Source of the DNA: Peribacillus frigoritolerans
GTDB lineage: Bacteria > Bacillota > Bacilli > Bacillales > DSM-1321
Direction: 5' to 3'
NCBI RefSeq assembly: GCF_001636405.1
Contig: NZ_KV440950.1
Span: forward strand, 953,712 to 1,017,711
DNA length: 64,000 nt
The translations under genes were made by a program, and so were the position numbers. The notes beneath the pieces were generated by a model. The model saw nothing but the letters and a program-made list of their open reading frames with translations. It did not search any database and was not told the origin of the DNA. Of this stretch, positions 12,018 to 59,790 are shown piece after piece; the stretch's first letter is position 1; every line of letters begins with the position of its first letter.

Positions 12018-12262
12018 TATACAAAAAATCCCGCCTCATTAAGAGACGAGATTTTAACTCGCGGCACCACTCTTGTTTAATAATTAAACGCACATCCCAT
12101 TTAACGGGGGGAAACCGGTAAAGCTTACTGAAGCTTCGGCTTTACTTCTCGGGGATGATATTCGGTCAGATTCTGTACACTGGCTTTCAGCAAAGCACCA
12201 GCTCTCTTTGGAACAGAACGATAACGTACTCCTTCCCTTCATGGAATTTTACATTTGATGAA
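12018..12262 (-). promoter_or_regulatory. T-box leader, isoleucine-type specifier
   Basis: Read on the minus strand, the leader has Stem I with the AGTA element (in GGAGTACG) and a specifier loop CGAATATCA. The ATC triplet sits directly before the conserved purine, matching the glyQS layout, and reads Ile. Stem III (GTAAAGC / GCTTTAC) follows. The T-box proper is GAGTGGTGCCGCG at 12074-12062. Its TGGT would pair an A discriminator base, as in tRNA-Ile. A competing terminator (12055-12023, AAATCTCGTCTC with GAGGCGGGATTT, then T6) completes the switch. Uncharged tRNA should permit read-through into the ATP-grasp gene. Confidence 0.88.
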
Positions 12263-19807: not shown

Positions 19808-19978
19808 AAAAAGCTCCCGAAATAGGCGGTCTTATGACCTCCTTCGCTTTAGCCGACGAAGTTAGCTGACGGGTAGGATGGCGAAAGAGCTGATCTCATC
19901 CCTTCTGCAAGGCAGAATTAACCCCAAATGATTGGGTCCTCCGTACTCATTTACCATGAGTTTTGGCCGAAATGCATT
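19808..19978 (-). promoter_or_regulatory. ydaO-type c-di-AMP riboswitch controlling ktrBA
   Basis: On the minus strand the conserved blocks of the ydaO/yuaA class appear in order: GAGTACGGAGGACCC, TTGGGGTTAATTC, AGGGATGAGATC, and CCTACCCGTCAGCTAAC leading into GTCGGCTAAAGCGAAGG. An expression platform follows, where AGCGAAGGAGGTC can pair with GACCGCCTATTTC before GAGCTTTTTTT. It is an off-switch in known members: high c-di-AMP stops potassium-uptake genes. Exact edges are approximate. Confidence 0.88.
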
Positions 19979-52801: not shown

Positions 52802-52975
52802 GGCGGGTCTATCTATTAAGAAACAAGTGTAAAATTCTATTAGAAGCTCAGGTGTCATTCCATTAAGGGCGAATTCTTTAAAAAAGCATGCTTTCCTTAA
52901 TGAACTAATGGGTGCTTTTACTTCAATAATGCAGCTCTCACTTTGTCGACAAAAGGATTTTACCTAAAATTTTAA

Positions 52976-53103
52976 AGTTGATTGGAACGGAGGGTGCGAG
53001 ACTCCTGCGGGAAAAGCGTGTCGAGGGGAGACCCCGCAGGCGCAAGGCCGAGGAGGCTCCCGGACCGCCCGCGGAAAGCGAGTGCCTGTAGTGGAAATCA
53101 ACT
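52976..53103 (+). repeat. Family A element A5
   Basis: A full core from AGTTGATTGGAACG to GTGGAAATCAACT (128 bp) with imperfect terminal inverted repeats. It is preceded by the family flank TTTGTCGACAAAAGGATTTT. It runs directly into a family B copy. Confidence 0.85.
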
Positions 53104-53280
53104 GAACTAGATTATCCTTAATGGTTTACTGTTTTATTAAACCTCTTATTGGATTGAAGAAATTTGCGGCACTCCTGCCGAAATACTGGCTAGTTCTGAC
53201 CCCACAGACGCTTGCGTCGAGGAGGCTTGGCAGGCAGTCGGCGGAAAGGGAGCGTATTTCCGGAATCACTGAACGTTTTT
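53104..53280 (+). repeat. Family B element B6
   Basis: This begins ACTAGATTATCCTTAATGG, has TTGGATTGAAGAAATTTGCG, and ends TCACTGAACG before T8. The inner hairpin is GACGC-TT-GCGTC, a paired change from GGCG/CGCC in the tandem array. Confidence 0.8.
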
Positions 53281-53295
53281 TTTGTATTACTAAAT

Positions 53296-53379
53296 AGTCA
53301 AATCGACTATTAAAAATAGTTTGACTTTTTTAACAATTATGTTTATATTTGGTTTAATACTAACTACCGTTAGTTAATA
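53296..53379 (+). promoter_or_regulatory. Promoter and TetR-type operator of the ureohydrolase operon
   Basis: -35 TTGACT (53321-53326) and -10 TATATT (53344-53349) are spaced 17 bp. Just downstream lies the dyad ACTAAC-TACC-GTTAGT (53359-53374), extended by AAT/TTAAT flanks. Its inverse matches a site in the tetR promoter at 57628-57649. A terminator-like stem AGTCAA/ACTATT with AATAGT/TTGACT (53296-53326) insulates it from the repeats and contains the -35. Confidence 0.7.
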
Positions 53380-53432
53380 TAGTGCAAAAAAGTAGGTGTT
53401 AGACATAAAAAGTAATTCAATGAATCATACTT

Positions 53433-53446
53433 TGTAAGCGATTACA
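53433..53446 (+). promoter_or_regulatory. cre box (CcpA site)
   Basis: TGTAAGCGATTACA matches the catabolite-responsive element consensus TGWAANCGNTNWCA at every fixed position. It lies about 85 bases downstream of the predicted promoter and 54 before the start codon, a roadblock position for carbon catabolite repression. Confidence 0.75.
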
Positions 53447-53499
53447 CATTGTATTTGTAAATCATATCAGTAGACTTTTAAAACCAGGAGATGATAATT

Positions 53500-54438
53500 A
53501 TGAAATATCCACTTACACCAGATGTAAAGCCAGAGTTTTGTACAACAGGAACTTTTATGCGTTTACCTTCTCAAAAGCATGATGCAAAGCTGGCAATTGT
53601 AGGTATGCCTTTTGATACAGCAGCATCTTTTCGGGTAGGAGCCAGGTTTGCTCCCCAAGCCATTCGCCAATCATCCATGACCCTGTTTCCTTATCATCCG
53701 ATTCATAATGTATATCCTTTTGAACAAATGAACGCCATTGATATTGGCGATATCCCTGTTATTCCCCATAATATTCATCGAAGCTATGAGCTAATGAAGG
53801 AATCCATTCATGAATTGATGTCCAAAGGGGTCATACCGATTGGATTAGGGGGAGACCATTCTGTTACTTTAGCTAGTTTACGAGCTGCGGCAAAGGTATA
53901 TGGACCAGTAGCCATGATTCATTTTGATTCCCATACAGATACCTGGGATACATATTATGAGGAAAAATATTGGCATGGATCTCCTTTCATTCGTGCCCAC
54001 GAAGAAGGTTTACTGCAGGAAGATAAAGTGTTTCAAATAGGAATCCGCGGCACGCTAAACCACTCTGGAGATTTACAGGCAAGCCTTGATTTAGGCTATC
54101 GCCTGATTACAACTGGTGAACTTTCCAATCGTGGATTTGAAGATGTTTTGAAAGAGATTAGAAAAACGATTGGTAACACCCCTTGTTTCTTGACATTTGA
54201 TATAGATTTCGTTGATCCTTCTTTTGCCCCAGGAACAGGTACACCTGAAATTGGTGGTTTTAGCAGCTATGATACATTAAAAATGATACGTTCTCTAACT
54301 GAATTTAACTTTATAGGATATGACGTGGTTGAAGTGCTGCCTTCATATGATCCAAGTCAAATCACTTCACTTTTAGCGGCAACACTTGTACATGAATTTG
54401 CCAGCCTGGCAGCATTAGGTGCGAAAGAAGATAATTAA
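53500..54438 (+). CDS. Ureohydrolase (agmatinase/guanidinobase hydrolase family)
   Basis: A 312-residue Mn2+ (or Ni2+) ureohydrolase that splits a guanidino compound to urea and an amine. Metal-binding motifs are GGDHS near 116, DSHTD near 143-147 (from HFDSHTDTWD) and DID near 233-235 (TFDIDFVDPSFAPGTGTPE). The loop DTWDTYYEEKYWHGSPFIRA resembles agmatinase-like enzymes. The usual DAH is DSH here. AGGAG lies about ten bases before ATG 53500. It is the first gene of a catabolic operon with an APC permease and an amidohydrolase. The substrate could be agmatine, guanidinobutyrate or another guanidine; sequence alone does not decide. Confidence 0.87.
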   Translation: MKYPLTPDVKPEFCTTGTFMRLPSQKHDAKLAIVGMPFDTAASFRVGARFAPQAIRQSSMTLFPYHPIHNVYPFEQMNAIDIGDIPVIPHNIHRSYELMKESIHELMSKGVIPIGLGGDHSVTLASLRAAAKVYGPVAMIHFDSHTDTWDTYYEEKYWHGSPFIRAHEEGLLQEDKVFQIGIRGTLNHSGDLQASLDLGYRLITTGELSNRGFEDVLKEIRKTIGNTPCFLTFDIDFVDPSFAPGTGTPEIGGFSSYDTLKMIRSLTEFNFIGYDVVEVLPSYDPSQITSLLAATLVHEFASLAALGAKEDN

Positions 54439-54494
54439 AATCACTTTAACTTAAAAACAGCCCATTTATTTAATAAAGGAGGCAGCTCTTTGCG

Positions 54495-55862
54495 ATGAAA
54501 GGATTCCCCGAGCTTAAGCGTTCACTGAATACAAGATATGTAATTGTATTTGGACTTTCCTTTATGGCGCCAGTGACAGTCTTTAGCACATATGGCATCG
54601 CTATTGATCGTACCCATGGAATGATTCCGACAGCATACATAATCGCGTTAATTGTCATGCTATTCACTTCATATAGTTACGCAAAAATGGTTCAGGTATA
54701 TCCCACTACCGGGTCAGCTTATACCTTTGTGCAGAAAGGAATTAATTCACACCTTGGTTTCCTGGTAGGATGGGTGATTTTATTGGATTATCTTTTCAGT
54801 CCTATGATCAGCGCTTTACTTTTTGGGATTATGGTGAATGCTTACTTCCCTGGTATTCCTATCGTTGCCGTTATCATTTCTTTTATCATTGCTGTGACAG
54901 CGATTAATATTTTTGGAATTAAGGTCGCTGCAAATGTGAATACCTTTTTGGTGATATTTCAATTTCTTTTTATCATGATCTTCAGCCTGCTTTGCATAAA
55001 TGGACTTTTAGCAGGAAAAGGCACCGGGGAGTTATTTTCTAAAGATCCTTTTTTTAGTCCAGACGTGAATATTAATAATCTGCTTTCGATTGTACCTTTA
55101 TTATGTTTTAGTTTTCTTGGGTTTGATGCGGTTACTACACTTGCAGAAGAGACCAAAAATCCGAAAAAAACACTTCCTAAAGCTATTTATGCTACGACAT
55201 TGATTGGAGGGTTATTATTTGTTGCAGCTACCTATTTTTTACAATCAATTTTCCCGAATTTCAATGCTTTTAAGAACCCTGATACAGCTATAGTCGATAT
55301 CATGATTTATACCGGGGGTAATTTTCTGAATAGTTTGTTTGTTGCTGTCGTAGTGACATCCGCTACTTCTTCTGCGATAGCTTCAGGAGGCAGCGGAGCC
55401 CGGATTTTGTATGCAATGGGGAGAGATAATGTTCTGCCTAAGCGGATTTTCGGATATGTTTCTCCAAAATTTCAAACGCCCATATTCAATATCTTGATCA
55501 TTGCTTGTGTTGCAATGAGCGCCGTATTTTTGGATATCGCAACGGCTACTTCTTTCATTAATTTTGGAGCATTGTTTGCTTTTACTTTCGTTAATCTTGC
55601 AGTGTTTATCCATTATTTTGTGAGACAGAAGCAGAGATCTCCTAAGAGTATCATTTTATATTTCCTTCTTCCCTTAATAGGCACCGGCATAACTATATTG
55701 TTTATGACAAAGTTGGATATCCATTCATTAGTATTAGGAATCACATGGATGACAGTAGGGTTCATTTACTTATTGTACTTAACAAAAATGTTTAAGGAAC
55801 GTCCTCCTGAACTGAATTTTGCAGAGCAAAAAGAAGAATTCGATGTGAAACTCGTGCAATGA
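54495..55862 (+). CDS. APC-family amino acid/polyamine permease
   Basis: A 455-residue, 12-helix APC transporter of the PuuP/amino-acid-permease type. The N-terminal YVIVFGLSFMAPVTVFSTYG motif and the GFDAVTTLAEETKNPKKTLPKAI loop are characteristic, as are SGGSGARILYAMGRD and NFGALFAFTFVN. AAAGGAGG precedes ATG. It lies 56 bases after the ureohydrolase gene, so it probably imports that enzyme's substrate or a related amine. A terminator is lacking between the genes. Confidence 0.88.
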   Translation: MKGFPELKRSLNTRYVIVFGLSFMAPVTVFSTYGIAIDRTHGMIPTAYIIALIVMLFTSYSYAKMVQVYPTTGSAYTFVQKGINSHLGFLVGWVILLDYLFSPMISALLFGIMVNAYFPGIPIVAVIISFIIAVTAINIFGIKVAANVNTFLVIFQFLFIMIFSLLCINGLLAGKGTGELFSKDPFFSPDVNINNLLSIVPLLCFSFLGFDAVTTLAEETKNPKKTLPKAIYATTLIGGLLFVAATYFLQSIFPNFNAFKNPDTAIVDIMIYTGGNFLNSLFVAVVVTSATSSAIASGGSGARILYAMGRDNVLPKRIFGYVSPKFQTPIFNILIIACVAMSAVFLDIATATSFINFGALFAFTFVNLAVFIHYFVRQKQRSPKSIILYFLLPLIGTGITILFMTKLDIHSLVLGITWMTVGFIYLLYLTKMFKERPPELNFAEQKEEFDVKLVQ

Positions 55863-55905
55863 TCAGTTACTGTTTTATTATTTTGAATGAAAAGAGGTAA
55901 ACTCC

Positions 55906-57549
55906 ATGACTATTAAAAAAGCGGATATTGTCCTTTCCAGTGATGCTATTTTCACAGGGCTTACACTTGAGCCAACGTCTGGGGCAATAGCTATCTTAGG
56001 TGACAAAATTTTGAGTGTAGGATCAAAAGCAGAGATTGAACAATTTATAGGAAGTGGGACAAAAGTATTTAACTATGGCAATCAATTGATTATGCCTGGA
56101 TTTCATGATTTTCATCTCCACATCATGTTCAGTGCACTAAGTTTAACTAGTATTAATTTATTTGAAGCCAGGTCAGCTCAAGAAGTGGCTGCAAAAGTAC
56201 TGGAATTTTCTAAAGAATGTCCTGAGGAAGGATGGATTATCGGCATGCAATGGGATGCAGGTTATTGGCATGATAAACAAGAGCCCCATTATAGAATTCT
56301 TGACGCTGTCATTCGAGATCGTCCTGTCGTTCTTTTTCATGCTGAAGGTCATTATACATGGGTGAACAGTAAGGCCATGGAATTAGCAGGAGTTACTGAG
56401 GAAATACGTGATCCGGATTTTGGTCGCTATGAAAGAGATAAGAATGGTTTACTTACTGGAATTTTATATGAAGAAGCCCAGCAAATCGTTTTAAAAGAGG
56501 CATTACGGTTAACACAAAATAAAAAAGAAACGATATTAAAAGAGTTTTTACGATTGTTATCGCAATATGGAATTACTTCTGTAAACGATTTGTTTGCGCC
56601 AATAGATGACTTCCTTCAAGACTATGATCTTTTTGAGAAATTGGATAAGCAAGGAGAATTAACGACTAGATTTCATATCACTCCTGAATTGGATGGCAAT
56701 TTGGACAAAGCTCAAATACTTAGAAATAAATATGTATCAAAGAAACTGCAATTCTCGGGATTAAAGCAATTCGTTGATGGAACAGTCACGGGTCATACCG
56801 CTTACTTCCTGAAACCTTACTCCGATCAATTGGATATTTGCGGTCATCCAGCTCTTGATCCAGAAGTATTGATCGATCGAGTTGTTAAAGCGGATGAACT
56901 CGGATTTAGAATCAGGTTTCACGCTATTGGAGATGCGGCAATTCGTTTAGCTTTAGACGCTTTTGAAGAAGCTGTACGCAAGAATGGAAAAAGAGACTCA
57001 AGGCATACAATCGAGCATATTGAAGTAATTGATTCGGATGACATTGAACGTTTTTCAAAACTGGGGGTCATTGCCTCGATGCAGCCTGATCACATGGCTG
57101 CTTCATCCAGAGAGGTATATTCTTCAATAATAGGTCCTGAAAGGGAAAAAAATGTTTTCCTGACGAAGTCGCTATTAAATACAGGTACATCTTTAGCTTT
57201 AGGAACAGACTTTCCGGTATCCATCTCATTAAATCCAATGCGGCAAATATATACTGCGATTACTAGAGTGGATAGTAGCGGAGATTCACAAAACACATGG
57301 CATCCTGAACAAAAACTCACTTTGGCAGAGGCATTGCAAGCATATACATATGGCTCAGCCCATGGATGTTTCAGGGAGCACGAGCTAGGTACAATAGAAG
57401 AGGGGAAACTTGCTGACCTTGTGGTATTAGACAGAAATCTATTTGATATTCCAGAATGTGAAGTGCTAAAAACTAAAGTGGAACTAACAATAAACGATGG
57501 GAAAGTTGTGTATAAAAGCGAAGAAACTTCTTTATCAAGCATATTCTAA
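55906..57549 (+). CDS. Amidohydrolase-superfamily enzyme, YtcJ/NfdA-like
   Basis: A 547-residue metal-dependent hydrolase with the two-domain amidohydrolase fold. The first metal motif is PGFHDFHLHI (His71, His73), followed by FHAIGDAAIRLALDAF, HTIEHIEVI, SMQPDH and the final metal Asp in LGTDFPV. This family includes N-substituted formamide deformylase and many enzymes of unknown substrate (YtcJ). AAGAGG precedes ATG 55906. Being third in the operon, it may deacylate or deformylate a derivative of the amine produced or imported. This is inference from context. Confidence 0.87.
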   Translation: MTIKKADIVLSSDAIFTGLTLEPTSGAIAILGDKILSVGSKAEIEQFIGSGTKVFNYGNQLIMPGFHDFHLHIMFSALSLTSINLFEARSAQEVAAKVLEFSKECPEEGWIIGMQWDAGYWHDKQEPHYRILDAVIRDRPVVLFHAEGHYTWVNSKAMELAGVTEEIRDPDFGRYERDKNGLLTGILYEEAQQIVLKEALRLTQNKKETILKEFLRLLSQYGITSVNDLFAPIDDFLQDYDLFEKLDKQGELTTRFHITPELDGNLDKAQILRNKYVSKKLQFSGLKQFVDGTVTGHTAYFLKPYSDQLDICGHPALDPEVLIDRVVKADELGFRIRFHAIGDAAIRLALDAFEEAVRKNGKRDSRHTIEHIEVIDSDDIERFSKLGVIASMQPDHMAASSREVYSSIIGPEREKNVFLTKSLLNTGTSLALGTDFPVSISLNPMRQIYTAITRVDSSGDSQNTWHPEQKLTLAEALQAYTYGSAHGCFREHELGTIEEGKLADLVVLDRNLFDIPECEVLKTKVELTINDGKVVYKSEETSLSSIF

Positions 57550-57618
57550 ATCTTATCTTTTAGAGAAAGAACCATGTTCCAAGGTGTTAAATATTTAGTT
57601 TAAAAAAGGAAATGAGTT

Positions 57619-57649
57619 TATAATGAAATTAACTGACGTTGGATAGTTT
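57619..57649 (+). promoter_or_regulatory. tetR promoter (-10) and operator
   Basis: -10 TATAAT (57619-57624) is followed by ATTAACTGACG...TAGTTT (57628-57649), which matches the inverted operator at 53355-53379 at 17 of 22 positions. It sits at the same place relative to the -10. No strong -35 is seen. Confidence 0.6.
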
Positions 57650-57660
57650 GGAGGCTCATT

Positions 57661-58239
57661 ATGACAAAAAATGAAATAAAAAACATTTCCTTATCACTTT
57701 TTACCAAGTACGGATACGAGGGAACTGCTTTATCGGAAATTGCCAAGGGGGTAGGTATACAAAAACCCTCAATCTATAACCATTTCAAAAATAAGGATGA
57801 CCTTTTCTTGTGTCTGTTTGAAGAAATCCTGGAAGAGCATATAAACCAGGTCGAACAATTTGTCGAAGAGATAAATACACTCTCTTGTGAAGAAAAGCTA
57901 AAGCACATCCTTCTAGATACTTGTAACTATTATAAAAACCATGAAGATAAAGCAACATTTTTAAAGAGGGCAATGATTTTCCCGCCGGAGCATTTGAAGC
58001 ACATCTTAAATGAAAGTTTCCTTAGATCTGAAGAATCATTTTCCGCTATCTTACATGCTATCTTTGTCGAAGGAATAGACAAAAAAGAAATACGCCAAGG
58101 GAAAATCGAGAACTTAATCATGTCTTATTTCTGTTTGATTGATGGGATATTCATGGAATTTTCTTATTATGGTAAAGAGAATATGGAACCTAGAATTCAG
58201 AATATATGGGAAAATTTTTGGTATGGACTAAGTGGATGA
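57661..58239 (+). CDS. TetR-family regulator of the ureohydrolase operon
   Basis: A 192-residue TetR/AcrR protein. The HTH KYGYEGTALSEIAKGVGIQKPSIYNHFKNKDDLFLCLFEE spans about 16-55. The C-terminal effector domain resembles the TetR_C group paired with catabolic and transport genes. GGAGG (57650-57654) serves ATG 57661. The related dyads before this gene and before the ureohydrolase gene imply autoregulation and repression of the operon, relieved by an amine or guanidino ligand. Confidence 0.88.
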   Translation: MTKNEIKNISLSLFTKYGYEGTALSEIAKGVGIQKPSIYNHFKNKDDLFLCLFEEILEEHINQVEQFVEEINTLSCEEKLKHILLDTCNYYKNHEDKATFLKRAMIFPPEHLKHILNESFLRSEESFSAILHAIFVEGIDKKEIRQGKIENLIMSYFCLIDGIFMEFSYYGKENMEPRIQNIWENFWYGLSG

Positions 58240-58328
58240 TACGTTCAAAAAGTTCATGCTCTAAAAACGATCAAATAGGAATATTTATCTGCTCATTCCG
58301 ATTAAGTCTGTGGGCTGTACAGTGATTC

Positions 58329-58437
58329 GTTGATTGGAACGTAGGGCACTCGCTTTCCGAGGGCGGTCCGCCCTCGGCGACTATGCGCCTGTGGGGTCTC
58401 CCCCCACGCTTCTCCCGCAGGAGTCTCGCGCCTAAAA
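58329..58437 (-). repeat. Family A element A6 (rearranged)
   Basis: The core runs from GGCACTCGCTTTCC to GCAGGAGTCTCGCG, with a perfect palindrome CCGAGGGCGG-T-CCGCCCTCGG. Both ends look recombined: the left end reads GTTGATTGGAACGTA, a right-end sequence in place of the left one. No other gene lies in 58240-58717. Confidence 0.75.
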
Positions 58438-59319: not shown

Positions 59320-59447
59320 CCCTTATTGGGGAAGACATATGCGACACTCCTGCCGAATAACCGGCTAGCCGAGACCCCACAGACGCTTGGCAGATAGTCG
59401 GCGGAAAGGGAGCAGATTTCTGAAATCAACTCGAACGTTTTTGAGGG
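59320..59447 (+). repeat. Family B element B7 (degenerate)
   Basis: The TATGCGACACTCCTGCCG to GAAATCAACTCGAACG segment lacks the inner hairpin. Its main stem is partly unpaired (CCGGCT against AGATAG). Confidence 0.75.
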
Positions 59448-59462
59448 TTAGTAAACCAGATC

Positions 59463-59588
59463 GTTGATTTCCACTCCATGCACTCGCTTTCCGCGGGCGG
59501 TCCGGGGAGCCTCCTCGGCAAGGCCTGCGGGGTCTCCCTTGGCCACGCTTTTCCCGCAGGAGTCTCGTACCTTACGTTCCAATCAACT
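59463..59588 (-). repeat. Family A element A7
   Basis: A full core from GTTGATTTCCACTCC to CCAATCAACT, in the A1-A3 orientation, sandwiched between two B elements. Confidence 0.85.
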
Positions 59589-59599
59589 GGAACGTTTTT

Positions 59600-59790
59600 T
59601 AAAATAAAAACTGCAGGCTGGGCTGGTCTATTCCGAACCAAGTTTAGTTTATTCTTTGAATTTTTCTCCTGTACTCCTTATTGGATGGAGGAAATATGCG
59701 AGACCCCACAGACGCTTGCGTCGAGGAGGCTTGGCAGACAGTCGGCGGAAAGGGCGGATTTCTGAAATCAACTCGAATTTGCCTGAAAGT
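59600..59790 (+). repeat. Family B element B8
   Basis: The AAAACTGCAGGCTGG leader and GGATGGAGGAAATATGCGAG to GAAATCAACTCGAA. About 30 bases of the left stem arm are missing. The inner hairpin is GACGC-TT-GCGTC, as in B6. Confidence 0.8.

What the first reader, a model, noticed from the sequence alone, without database searches (positions are those of the whole stretch)
53296..58239. TetR- and CcpA-type controlled guanidino/amine catabolic operon of unknown substrate
Ureohydrolase, APC permease, YtcJ-like amidohydrolase and TetR are arranged in order. A promoter is followed by a dyad ACTAAC-TACC-GTTAGT that recurs inverted at the tetR promoter, at the same distance from the -10. A full-consensus cre box (TGTAAGCGATTACA) lies downstream. 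Uptake, urea release from a guanidino group and amide or formamide hydrolysis would form a new degradative route. Genes and sites are seen; the pathway is inferred.
Basis: partly seen in the sequence, partly recalled or inferred. Interest (0 to 1): 0.75.

Follow-up and report, generated by a model that had tools for sequence, protein, structure and literature searches.

The report
TetR-controlled agmatine degradation operon in Peribacillus
A Peribacillus bacterium carries a small, switchable operon that most likely imports and breaks down the natural amine agmatine; its DNA switch is real and conserved, and the exact job of one of its enzymes is still unknown.

Summary
Ureohydrolase, APC permease, YtcJ-like amidohydrolase and TetR genes lie in order. 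The dyad is a real operator, read off-register: the conserved unit is a 20-bp palindrome, ACTAACTACC|GGTAGTTAGT (window copy: 2 mismatches). It stands upstream of the ureohydrolase in 19 of 19 loci that carry the tetR gene; a degenerate inverted copy follows the tetR -10. The cre box is present in 5 of 5 Peribacillus loci and 0 of 17 others.

The 'unknown substrate' is most likely agmatine. In two genomes an agmatine deiminase gene adjoins the orthologous operator-APC-amidohydrolase-tetR unit. The ureohydrolase passes one agmatinase model but misses a stricter one. The amidohydrolase family is linked to agmatine or polyamine genes in 19 of 27 loci not brought in by the ureohydrolase; all 7 amidohydrolase genomes found with agmatine deiminase have it within 27 kb.

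Best reading: an AguR-like, substrate-induced operon. APC imports agmatine or a conjugate, agmatinase gives putrescine and urea, and the amidohydrolase probably frees the amine from an amide. That reaction is inferred only; a rival, a new agmatine deiminase, stays open. New variant of a known kind.

The parts
53321..53349 (+). Promoter of the operon, TTGACT-17-TATATT
   Evidence: TTGACT lies within 50 nt upstream of the operator in 18 of 19 tetR-bearing ureohydrolase loci
53359..53378 (+). TetR operator, 20-bp palindrome ACTAACTACCGTTAGTTAAT (2 mismatches from ACTAACTACCGGTAGTTAGT)
   Evidence: in 19 of 19 tetR-bearing ureohydrolase loci at 4 or fewer mismatches (18 of 19 at 2 or fewer); single site in the genome at 3 or fewer
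53433..53446 (+). cre box TGTAAGCGATTACA (CcpA-type site)
   Evidence: present in 5 of 5 Peribacillus loci, 0 of 17 other ureohydrolase loci with the operator
53500..54438 (+). Ureohydrolase (Arginase family), most likely agmatinase
   Evidence: context
54495..55862 (+). APC-type amino acid/amine permease
   Evidence: an APC gene lies within 300 bp of the amidohydrolase in 26 of 39 loci
55906..57549 (+). YtcJ-like metal-dependent amidohydrolase (Amidohydro_3); invariant H70, H72, K287, H339, H371, D435
57619..57624 (+). -10 element TATAAT of the tetR promoter
   Evidence: TATAAT within 80 nt upstream in 36 of 37 tetR copies, some of which are the same gene fetched twice
57628..57647 (+). Second, inverted and degenerate copy of the operator at the tetR promoter (ATTAACTGACGTTGGATAGT)
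   Evidence: sister loci have ATTAACTAACGTTAGATAGT
57661..58239 (+). TetR-family regulator
   Evidence: co-occurs with the operator

Best explanation
This is an inducible agmatine-catabolic operon. Shown by sequence conservation: a TetR-family regulator is co-conserved with a 20-bp operator just downstream of the -10 of the operon promoter, with a second, weaker copy at its own promoter. Inferred: without inducer the TetR represses; agmatine or a close derivative releases it, as agmatine releases AguR in Pseudomonas aeruginosa; the cre box adds glucose repression through CcpA in Peribacillus. Inferred: the APC permease imports agmatine or an agmatine/putrescine conjugate; the ureohydrolase is an agmatinase that makes putrescine and urea; putrescine is then degraded by enzymes coded elsewhere. 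The YtcJ-like amidohydrolase is most likely an amidase that frees agmatine or putrescine (or a breakdown product) from an N-acylated form, so that conjugated and free amine enter the same route. Likelihoods: agmatine as the substrate of the cluster about 0.75; amidohydrolase an amidase of acylated agmatine or putrescine about 0.45.
For: (1) In G393 and G336 the operator-APC(71%)-amidohydrolase(74-75%)-tetR(74%) unit lies directly downstream of an agmatine deiminase gene (TIGR03380, 548 bits, cut-off 382, scored for G393; the G336 gene is 98% identical). (2) The ureohydrolase passes the NCBIfam agmatinase equivalog TIGR01230 (222 bits, cut-off 174; whether guanidinobutyrases pass it too was not tested) and has an aromatic residue (Trp149) where E. 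coli agmatinase has Tyr155 (role of Tyr155 from passages of PMC8125230). (3) Of 61 related ureohydrolase loci without this tetR, 43 have a putrescine aminotransferase, an aldehyde dehydrogenase or a glutamate dehydrogenase in the stretch fetched (families); this is so in only 2 of the 19 with tetR. (4) Amidohydrolase-family loci: 23 of 39 examined have agmatinase, agmatine deiminase or carbamoylputrescine amidase within 12 kb, and 31 of 39 if putrescine aminotransferase and Pot transporter are added; without the 12 loci that are the window or came through the ureohydrolase search, 11 of 27 and 19 of 27. (5) 7 of 42 amidohydrolase genomes tested have agmatine deiminase, and in all 7 it lies within 27 kb. 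(6) In G421, G285 and G326 one island holds AguA, AguB, putrescine aminotransferase, aldehyde dehydrogenases, Pot transporter, an acetyltransferase and the amidohydrolase, so there it need be neither the deiminase nor the carbamoylase. (7) Operator: 19 of 19 tetR-bearing loci; among 61 without tetR only 3, whose contigs end soon after the ureohydrolase or within the amidohydrolase.
Against: Best solved-structure hits of the ureohydrolase are guanidinobutyrase (234 bits) and guanidinopropionase (224), ahead of agmatinase 7lol (206); the stricter agmatinase model PRK02190 is missed (289 against 302); the Trp68 loop of E. coli agmatinase is absent. The deiminase gene in G393/G336 lies upstream of the operator, so it is a neighbour of the TetR unit and not shown to be under it. 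8 of 39 amidohydrolase loci have none of the markers: L120 (own tandem), L126, L165, L167, and L130, L174, L175, L176 of one family. In 14 Peribacillus genomes the amidohydrolase sits directly beside carbamoylputrescine amidase with no agmatine deiminase in the genome, which suits the rival reading.
Confidence: 0.62

Rival explanations
1. The amidohydrolase is a new, non-homologous agmatine deiminase (iminohydrolase) that turns agmatine into N-carbamoylputrescine; in the window it gives a second exit for agmatine beside agmatinase.
For: APC-amidohydrolase-AguB units without AguA: 14 of 15 Peribacillus genomes with an AguB of 70% or more identity have the amidohydrolase next to it (coordinates; G024 is the exception), and none of the 15 has a PAD_porph deiminase. 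The AguB beside the amidohydrolase in L127 and L166 is 80-82% identical to the AguB beside a true AguA in L131. Deaminations of formimino and guanidine-like groups are known elsewhere in the amidohydrolase superfamily (recalled).
Against: In G393/G336, G294, G421/G285/G326 and G101 the amidohydrolase is linked to a true agmatine deiminase, which would make it redundant. It keeps the lysine of two-metal amidases, while superfamily deaminases are as a rule mononuclear (recalled). AguB-like hits at E up to 1e-60 also occur in 45 of 121 genomes, many with neither partner, so AguB alone is a loose guide.
Confidence: 0.2
2. The operon degrades 4-guanidinobutyrate (or another guanidino acid): the ureohydrolase releases urea and GABA, and the amidohydrolase opens or deacylates a precursor.
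For: Top PDB relatives are guanidinobutyrase and guanidinopropionase; aldehyde dehydrogenase and glutamate dehydrogenase near the related ureohydrolases also suit a guanidinobutyrate-to-GABA route.
Against: Agmatine deiminase and carbamoylputrescine amidase are recurrent partners of the amidohydrolase; TIGR01230 is met; the site holds Trp149 where guanidinobutyrase and guanidinopropionase have Asn (alignments).
Confidence: 0.15
3. The amidohydrolase hydrolyses N-acylated putrescine-derived products (for example N-acetyl-GABA) after oxidation, like the last step of a blocked-amine pathway, and the ureohydrolase merely shares its inducer.
For: An acetyltransferase (GNAT) gene lies within 12 kb of the amidohydrolase in 9 of the 27 loci not brought in by the ureohydrolase search, directly beside it in L163 and L169, as a rule with Pot transporter and oxidase genes.
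Against: No acetyltransferase, oxidase or dehydrogenase in the window operon; the window clade is distinct from the Pot clades (tree).
Confidence: 0.2

Closest known systems
aguR-aguBA of Pseudomonas aeruginosa (TetR-controlled agmatine deiminase operon)
   Same: A TetR-family repressor at the promoter of agmatine-degrading genes; released by agmatine (passages of PMC4287709).
   Different: There deiminase plus carbamoylputrescine amidase; here agmatinase plus permease plus YtcJ-like amidohydrolase. Orthology of the two regulators was not tested.
Acetylpolyamine amidohydrolases PA0321/PA1409 of P. aeruginosa
   Same: Amidases that make acylated polyamines usable; their genes are induced by acetylputrescine and agmatine (passages of PMC4784309).
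   Different: Relatives of histone deacetylases (fold recalled), unlike the Amidohydro_3 enzyme here; analogous at most.
Amidohydro_3 / YtcJ-like amidases (metal-dependent bile salt hydrolases)
   Same: Same Pfam family; amide hydrolysis, predicted two metals bridged by a carboxylated lysine (passages of PMC13081902, a preprint).
   Different: Substrates are bile-acid and other N-acyl taurines; BwBSH1 is a 101-kDa protein.
Agmatinase SpeB (E. coli, 7lol)
   Same: Arginase-fold ureohydrolase, same catalytic motifs; TIGR01230 met.
   Different: 206 bits in phmmer, below guanidinobutyrase; Trp68 loop missing here; Trp in place of Tyr155. That 7lol is the E. coli protein is recalled.

Membership tests
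Agmatinase | Arginase-family fold with GGDH, DxHxD and DxD metal motifs | tested here: met
   PF00491 292 bits; GGDHS, DSHTD, FDIDF in the alignment
Agmatinase | Score above an NCBIfam agmatinase cut-off | tested here: inconclusive
   Equivalog TIGR01230 222 against 174.3, met; subfamily PRK02190 289.3 against 302, not met
Agmatinase | Aromatic pocket for the amino group of agmatine (Tyr155, Trp68' in E. coli) | tested here: inconclusive
   Trp149 stands at Tyr155; Trp68 loop absent (residue roles from passages of PMC8125230)
Agmatinase | Hydrolysis of agmatine to putrescine and urea | not testable with these tools
   needs an enzyme assay
Guanidinobutyrase/guanidinopropionase | Asn after the DxHxD(T/V) motif, as in 3nio and 3nip | tested here: not met
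   Trp in the window protein (alignment); that this residue marks the family is my inference
TetR-type repressor with operator | TetR_N domain plus a co-conserved palindrome at the target promoter and at its own | tested here: met
   the own-promoter copy is weak and not found in some loci (for example L044, L048, L062)
AguR (agmatine-responsive TetR) | Induction by agmatine; orthology to AguR | not tested
   AguR sequence was not fetched; induction needs an experiment
YtcJ-like amidohydrolase (Amidohydro_3) | PF07969 and the six metal-site residues HxH, K, H, H, D | tested here: met
   346 bits; H70, H72, K287, H339, H371, D435 invariant in 12 sequences and aligned with 3icj
N-substituted formamide deformylase | Deformylation of N-substituted formamides | not testable with these tools
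   One database entry bears this name (P0106); no functional evidence
Acetylpolyamine amidohydrolase (HDAC superfamily) | Histone-deacetylase fold | tested here: not met
   The protein is Amidohydro_3; it could only work like one
CcpA regulon | cre consensus near the promoter, conserved | tested here: met
   in Peribacillus only; presence of CcpA and glucose repression not tested

The most novel reading that the evidence does not exclude
The YtcJ-like family in this operon is a so far unassigned enzyme of agmatine/polyamine metabolism in Bacillales: a metal-dependent acyl-agmatine/acyl-polyamine amidohydrolase, unrelated in fold to the known acetylpolyamine amidohydrolases, or else a new agmatine deiminase. 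Either would give a function to a sizeable unassigned subfamily.
Probability: 0.55. Interest if true: 0.6.

Novelty: new variant of a known kind. Interest (0 to 1): 0.45.

Why it matters
It turns an 'unknown-substrate' operon into a testable agmatine operon with a defined 20-bp operator, gives a candidate agmatine-responsive sensor for Bacillales, and predicts a polyamine role for a subfamily of YtcJ-like amidohydrolases, a family with few known substrates (recalled). Peribacillus strains are often plant-associated (recalled), and acylated agmatines such as coumaroylagmatine are plant compounds (listing).

Tried and rejected
Riboswitch control (for example guanidine riboswitches): Rfam at gathering thresholds finds none near the operon. 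A wider regulon in the own genome: only one operator at 3 or fewer mismatches. The AlphaFold model of the amidohydrolase from 12 sequences is weak (mean pLDDT 64, pTM 0.70); its fold search returns the uncharacterised hydrolases 3icj and 3igh first, which adds nothing on substrate, so no pocket argument is made. Protein search with the amidohydrolase: 1329 proteins at the cut-off, but the 120 listed are all 97% or more identical and of little use. Literature: searches, seen as listings with the start of the abstracts (20 of 41 papers listed, 15 of 17, all in the others), showed no description of this operon or of a YtcJ-like enzyme in agmatine metabolism; that holds for the open-access library and these terms only. 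PMC8766522 (passages) has a ytcJ mutant but no substrate. Considered and rejected: that the amidohydrolase is merely the carbamoylputrescine amidase (redundant beside AguB).

Dropped rows: L090 was left out of the 80 ureohydrolase loci because no single open frame in it passed 65% identity; it has no operator at 4 or fewer mismatches. The 27 unbiased amidohydrolase loci are a choice of mine from the hits, not all of them. Seven amidohydrolase genomes were not tested for agmatine deiminase. Ten of the 40 operator genomes got no locus and were not looked at.
Full report
WHAT IS THERE. The window lies in a Peribacillus genome (5.46 Mb; near-identical proteins are mostly named P. frigoritolerans). 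Four + strand genes follow each other: ureohydrolase 53500-54438, APC permease 54495-55862, YtcJ-like amidohydrolase 55906-57549 and TetR 57661-58239. The first three are 56 and 43 nt apart; tetR follows after 111 nt with its own -10.

THE SWITCH. Of 80 ureohydrolase loci (79 of the 80, L090 dropped, plus the window), 19 carry an orthologous tetR (45% identity or more), and all 19 have the operator upstream of the ureohydrolase: 0 mismatches in 1, one in 13, two in 4, four in 1. They are Peribacillus, Priestia abyssalis, Bacillus wudalianchiensis, Neobacillus, Gottfriedia, Fictibacillus and unnamed Bacillus strains. Of the 61 without tetR, 3 have it (L052, L059, L066); their contigs end inside the amidohydrolase or 260-500 nt after the ureohydrolase, so a tetR may lie beyond. 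TTGACT stands within 50 nt before the site in 18 of 19. The tetR promoter has an inverted copy, ATTAACTAACGTTAGATAGT, in sister Peribacillus loci; in the window it is degraded (57628-57647). In Gottfriedia-type loci a related site, GCTAACAACAGTTAGT, stands there; in some others (for example L044, L048, L062) none was found. Across 397 genomes of the order the operator at 2 or fewer mismatches occurs in 40, the reversed control pattern in 6. Of the 40, 12 sites lie at the ureohydrolase and 2 beside agmatine deiminase; 16 lie elsewhere, 15 of them near a distant TetR relative; 10 were not looked at.

THE cre BOX. TGTAAGCGATTACA at 53433-53446 fits the consensus and starts 68-74 nt after the operator start in 5 of 5 Peribacillus loci, but in 0 of 17 other ureohydrolase loci with the operator, and not in L158 or L159. 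The exact 14-mer occurs at three places in the genome. So catabolite control, if real, is a Peribacillus feature.

THE SUBSTRATE. The strongest clue is in two genomes, G393 and G336. There the tetR (74%), amidohydrolase (74-75%) and permease (71%) orthologues, with the operator before the permease, lie directly downstream of a gene that scores 548 bits with the agmatine deiminase model (cut-off 382). Agmatine deiminase and agmatinase use the same substrate. The deiminase gene is upstream of the operator, so it is a neighbour and not shown to be regulated by this TetR. Second, the ureohydrolase passes TIGR01230 agmatinase, although its best solved relatives are guanidinobutyrase and guanidinopropionase and it misses the stricter PRK02190. 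Third, the 61 related ureohydrolases without tetR (67-82% identity) have putrescine aminotransferase, aldehyde dehydrogenase or glutamate dehydrogenase in the stretch fetched in 43 cases; the 19 with tetR in 2, so the tetR operon itself leaves putrescine to other loci. The own genome holds 8 arginase-family genes; one lies beside a gene whose place and size suggest spermidine synthase (L122; my inference, no model was run), so the window copy is probably catabolic and not biosynthetic.

THE AMIDOHYDROLASE. It belongs to Amidohydro_3 with H70, H72, K287, H339, H371 and D435 invariant in the 12 sequences aligned and matched in 3icj, as expected for a two-metal amidase. I examined 39 loci. An APC gene is within 300 bp in 26. 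Agmatinase, agmatine deiminase or carbamoylputrescine amidase is within 12 kb in 23; adding putrescine aminotransferase or Pot transporter gives 31. Twelve of these loci are the window or came in through the ureohydrolase, so they are biased; the other 27, chosen from the hits, give 11 and 19. Loci with no such marker: L120, L126, L130, L165, L167 and L174-L176. No matched control regions were counted. Of 42 amidohydrolase genomes tested for agmatine deiminase (23; 19; 7 more were not tested), 7 have it, and in all 7 it lies 1.9-27 kb away on the same contig. These 7 belong to four families only, but a 27-kb reach on each side is 1-2% of such a genome.

In G421, G285 and G326 one island runs amidohydrolase, Pot transporter, FAD oxidase, aldehyde dehydrogenase, acetyltransferase, aldehyde dehydrogenase, putrescine aminotransferase, AguB, AguA (labels by similarity to genes scored). 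The steps from agmatine to GABA are there without the amidohydrolase, so I read it as an additional amidase that frees the amine, or a product of it, from an acyl form. P. aeruginosa has functional analogues, PA0321 and PA1409, induced by acetylputrescine and agmatine (PMC4784309, passages). Against this: in 14 of 15 Peribacillus genomes with close AguB the amidohydrolase is the immediate neighbour of AguB and no AguA was found, and AguB beside the amidohydrolase in L127 and L166 is 80-82% identical to AguB beside a true AguA. That is the pattern expected if the amidohydrolase replaced the deiminase. Clades may differ in substrate: in the tree of 44 sequences the window clade, the AguB clades and the Pot clades are separate, with one exception (L125, with AguB, falls among the Pot rows).

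HOW IT WORKS. TetR holds the operon down at the 20-bp site; the inducer, probably agmatine as with AguR (PMC4287709, passages), lifts it; permease and two enzymes are made together; tetR partly controls itself. Conservation of sites and order is shown; repression, inducer, transport and both reactions are inferred.

NOVELTY. The logic is known (TetR-controlled agmatine use). The gene set, the operator and the linkage of a YtcJ-like subfamily to agmatine enzymes were not seen in the listings of searches. I rate it a new variant of a known kind, with one step, the amidohydrolase, that deserves an assay.

CHECK. Changed: the paralogue identity range, the 2 of 19 contrast, the dropped locus L090, the mixed verdict on the agmatinase cut-offs, and the wording of what was not examined.

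Noticed in passing
L183-L198 (operator hits): In other Bacillales families nearly the same operator stands near a distant TetR relative (31-37% identity, in 15 of the 16 loci looked at), often with pairs of about 105-115 aa genes; one gene each in L187 and L195 was confirmed as small multidrug resistance (SMR) protein. The TetR subfamily may thus sense cationic amines or guanidines in general.
   Followed up: partly
L120 (own genome, about 3272000-3278300): A tandem APC-amidohydrolase-APC-amidohydrolase array (52-54% to the window enzyme) with no agmatine gene beside it.
   Followed up: partly
L018 and L213 (G024): In one Peribacillus genome (87% complete) the amidohydrolase match carries a stop and ends early, and the ureohydrolase is split over two open frames: a decaying operon or sequencing errors.
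   Followed up: no
window 52966-53270, 58327-58370, 59331-59754: GC-rich interspersed repeats, direct and inverted, flank the operon on both sides.
   Followed up: no
window 12039-12251 (-) and 19836-19978 (-): A T-box leader and a c-di-AMP riboswitch (Rfam), far from the operon.
   Followed up: no
tree: The amidohydrolases of the Peribacillus operon group with those beside agmatine deiminase in G393/G336 and not with those of the same gene order in Priestia, Neobacillus and Gottfriedia, which hints at replacement of this gene within a conserved operon.
   Followed up: partly
L158 15761-17008, L235 near 12518: An N-carbamoylase/allantoate amidohydrolase-type gene near agmatine deiminase, aminotransferase and aldehyde dehydrogenase suggests a route from agmatine through ureido intermediates that needs no AguB.
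   Followed up: no
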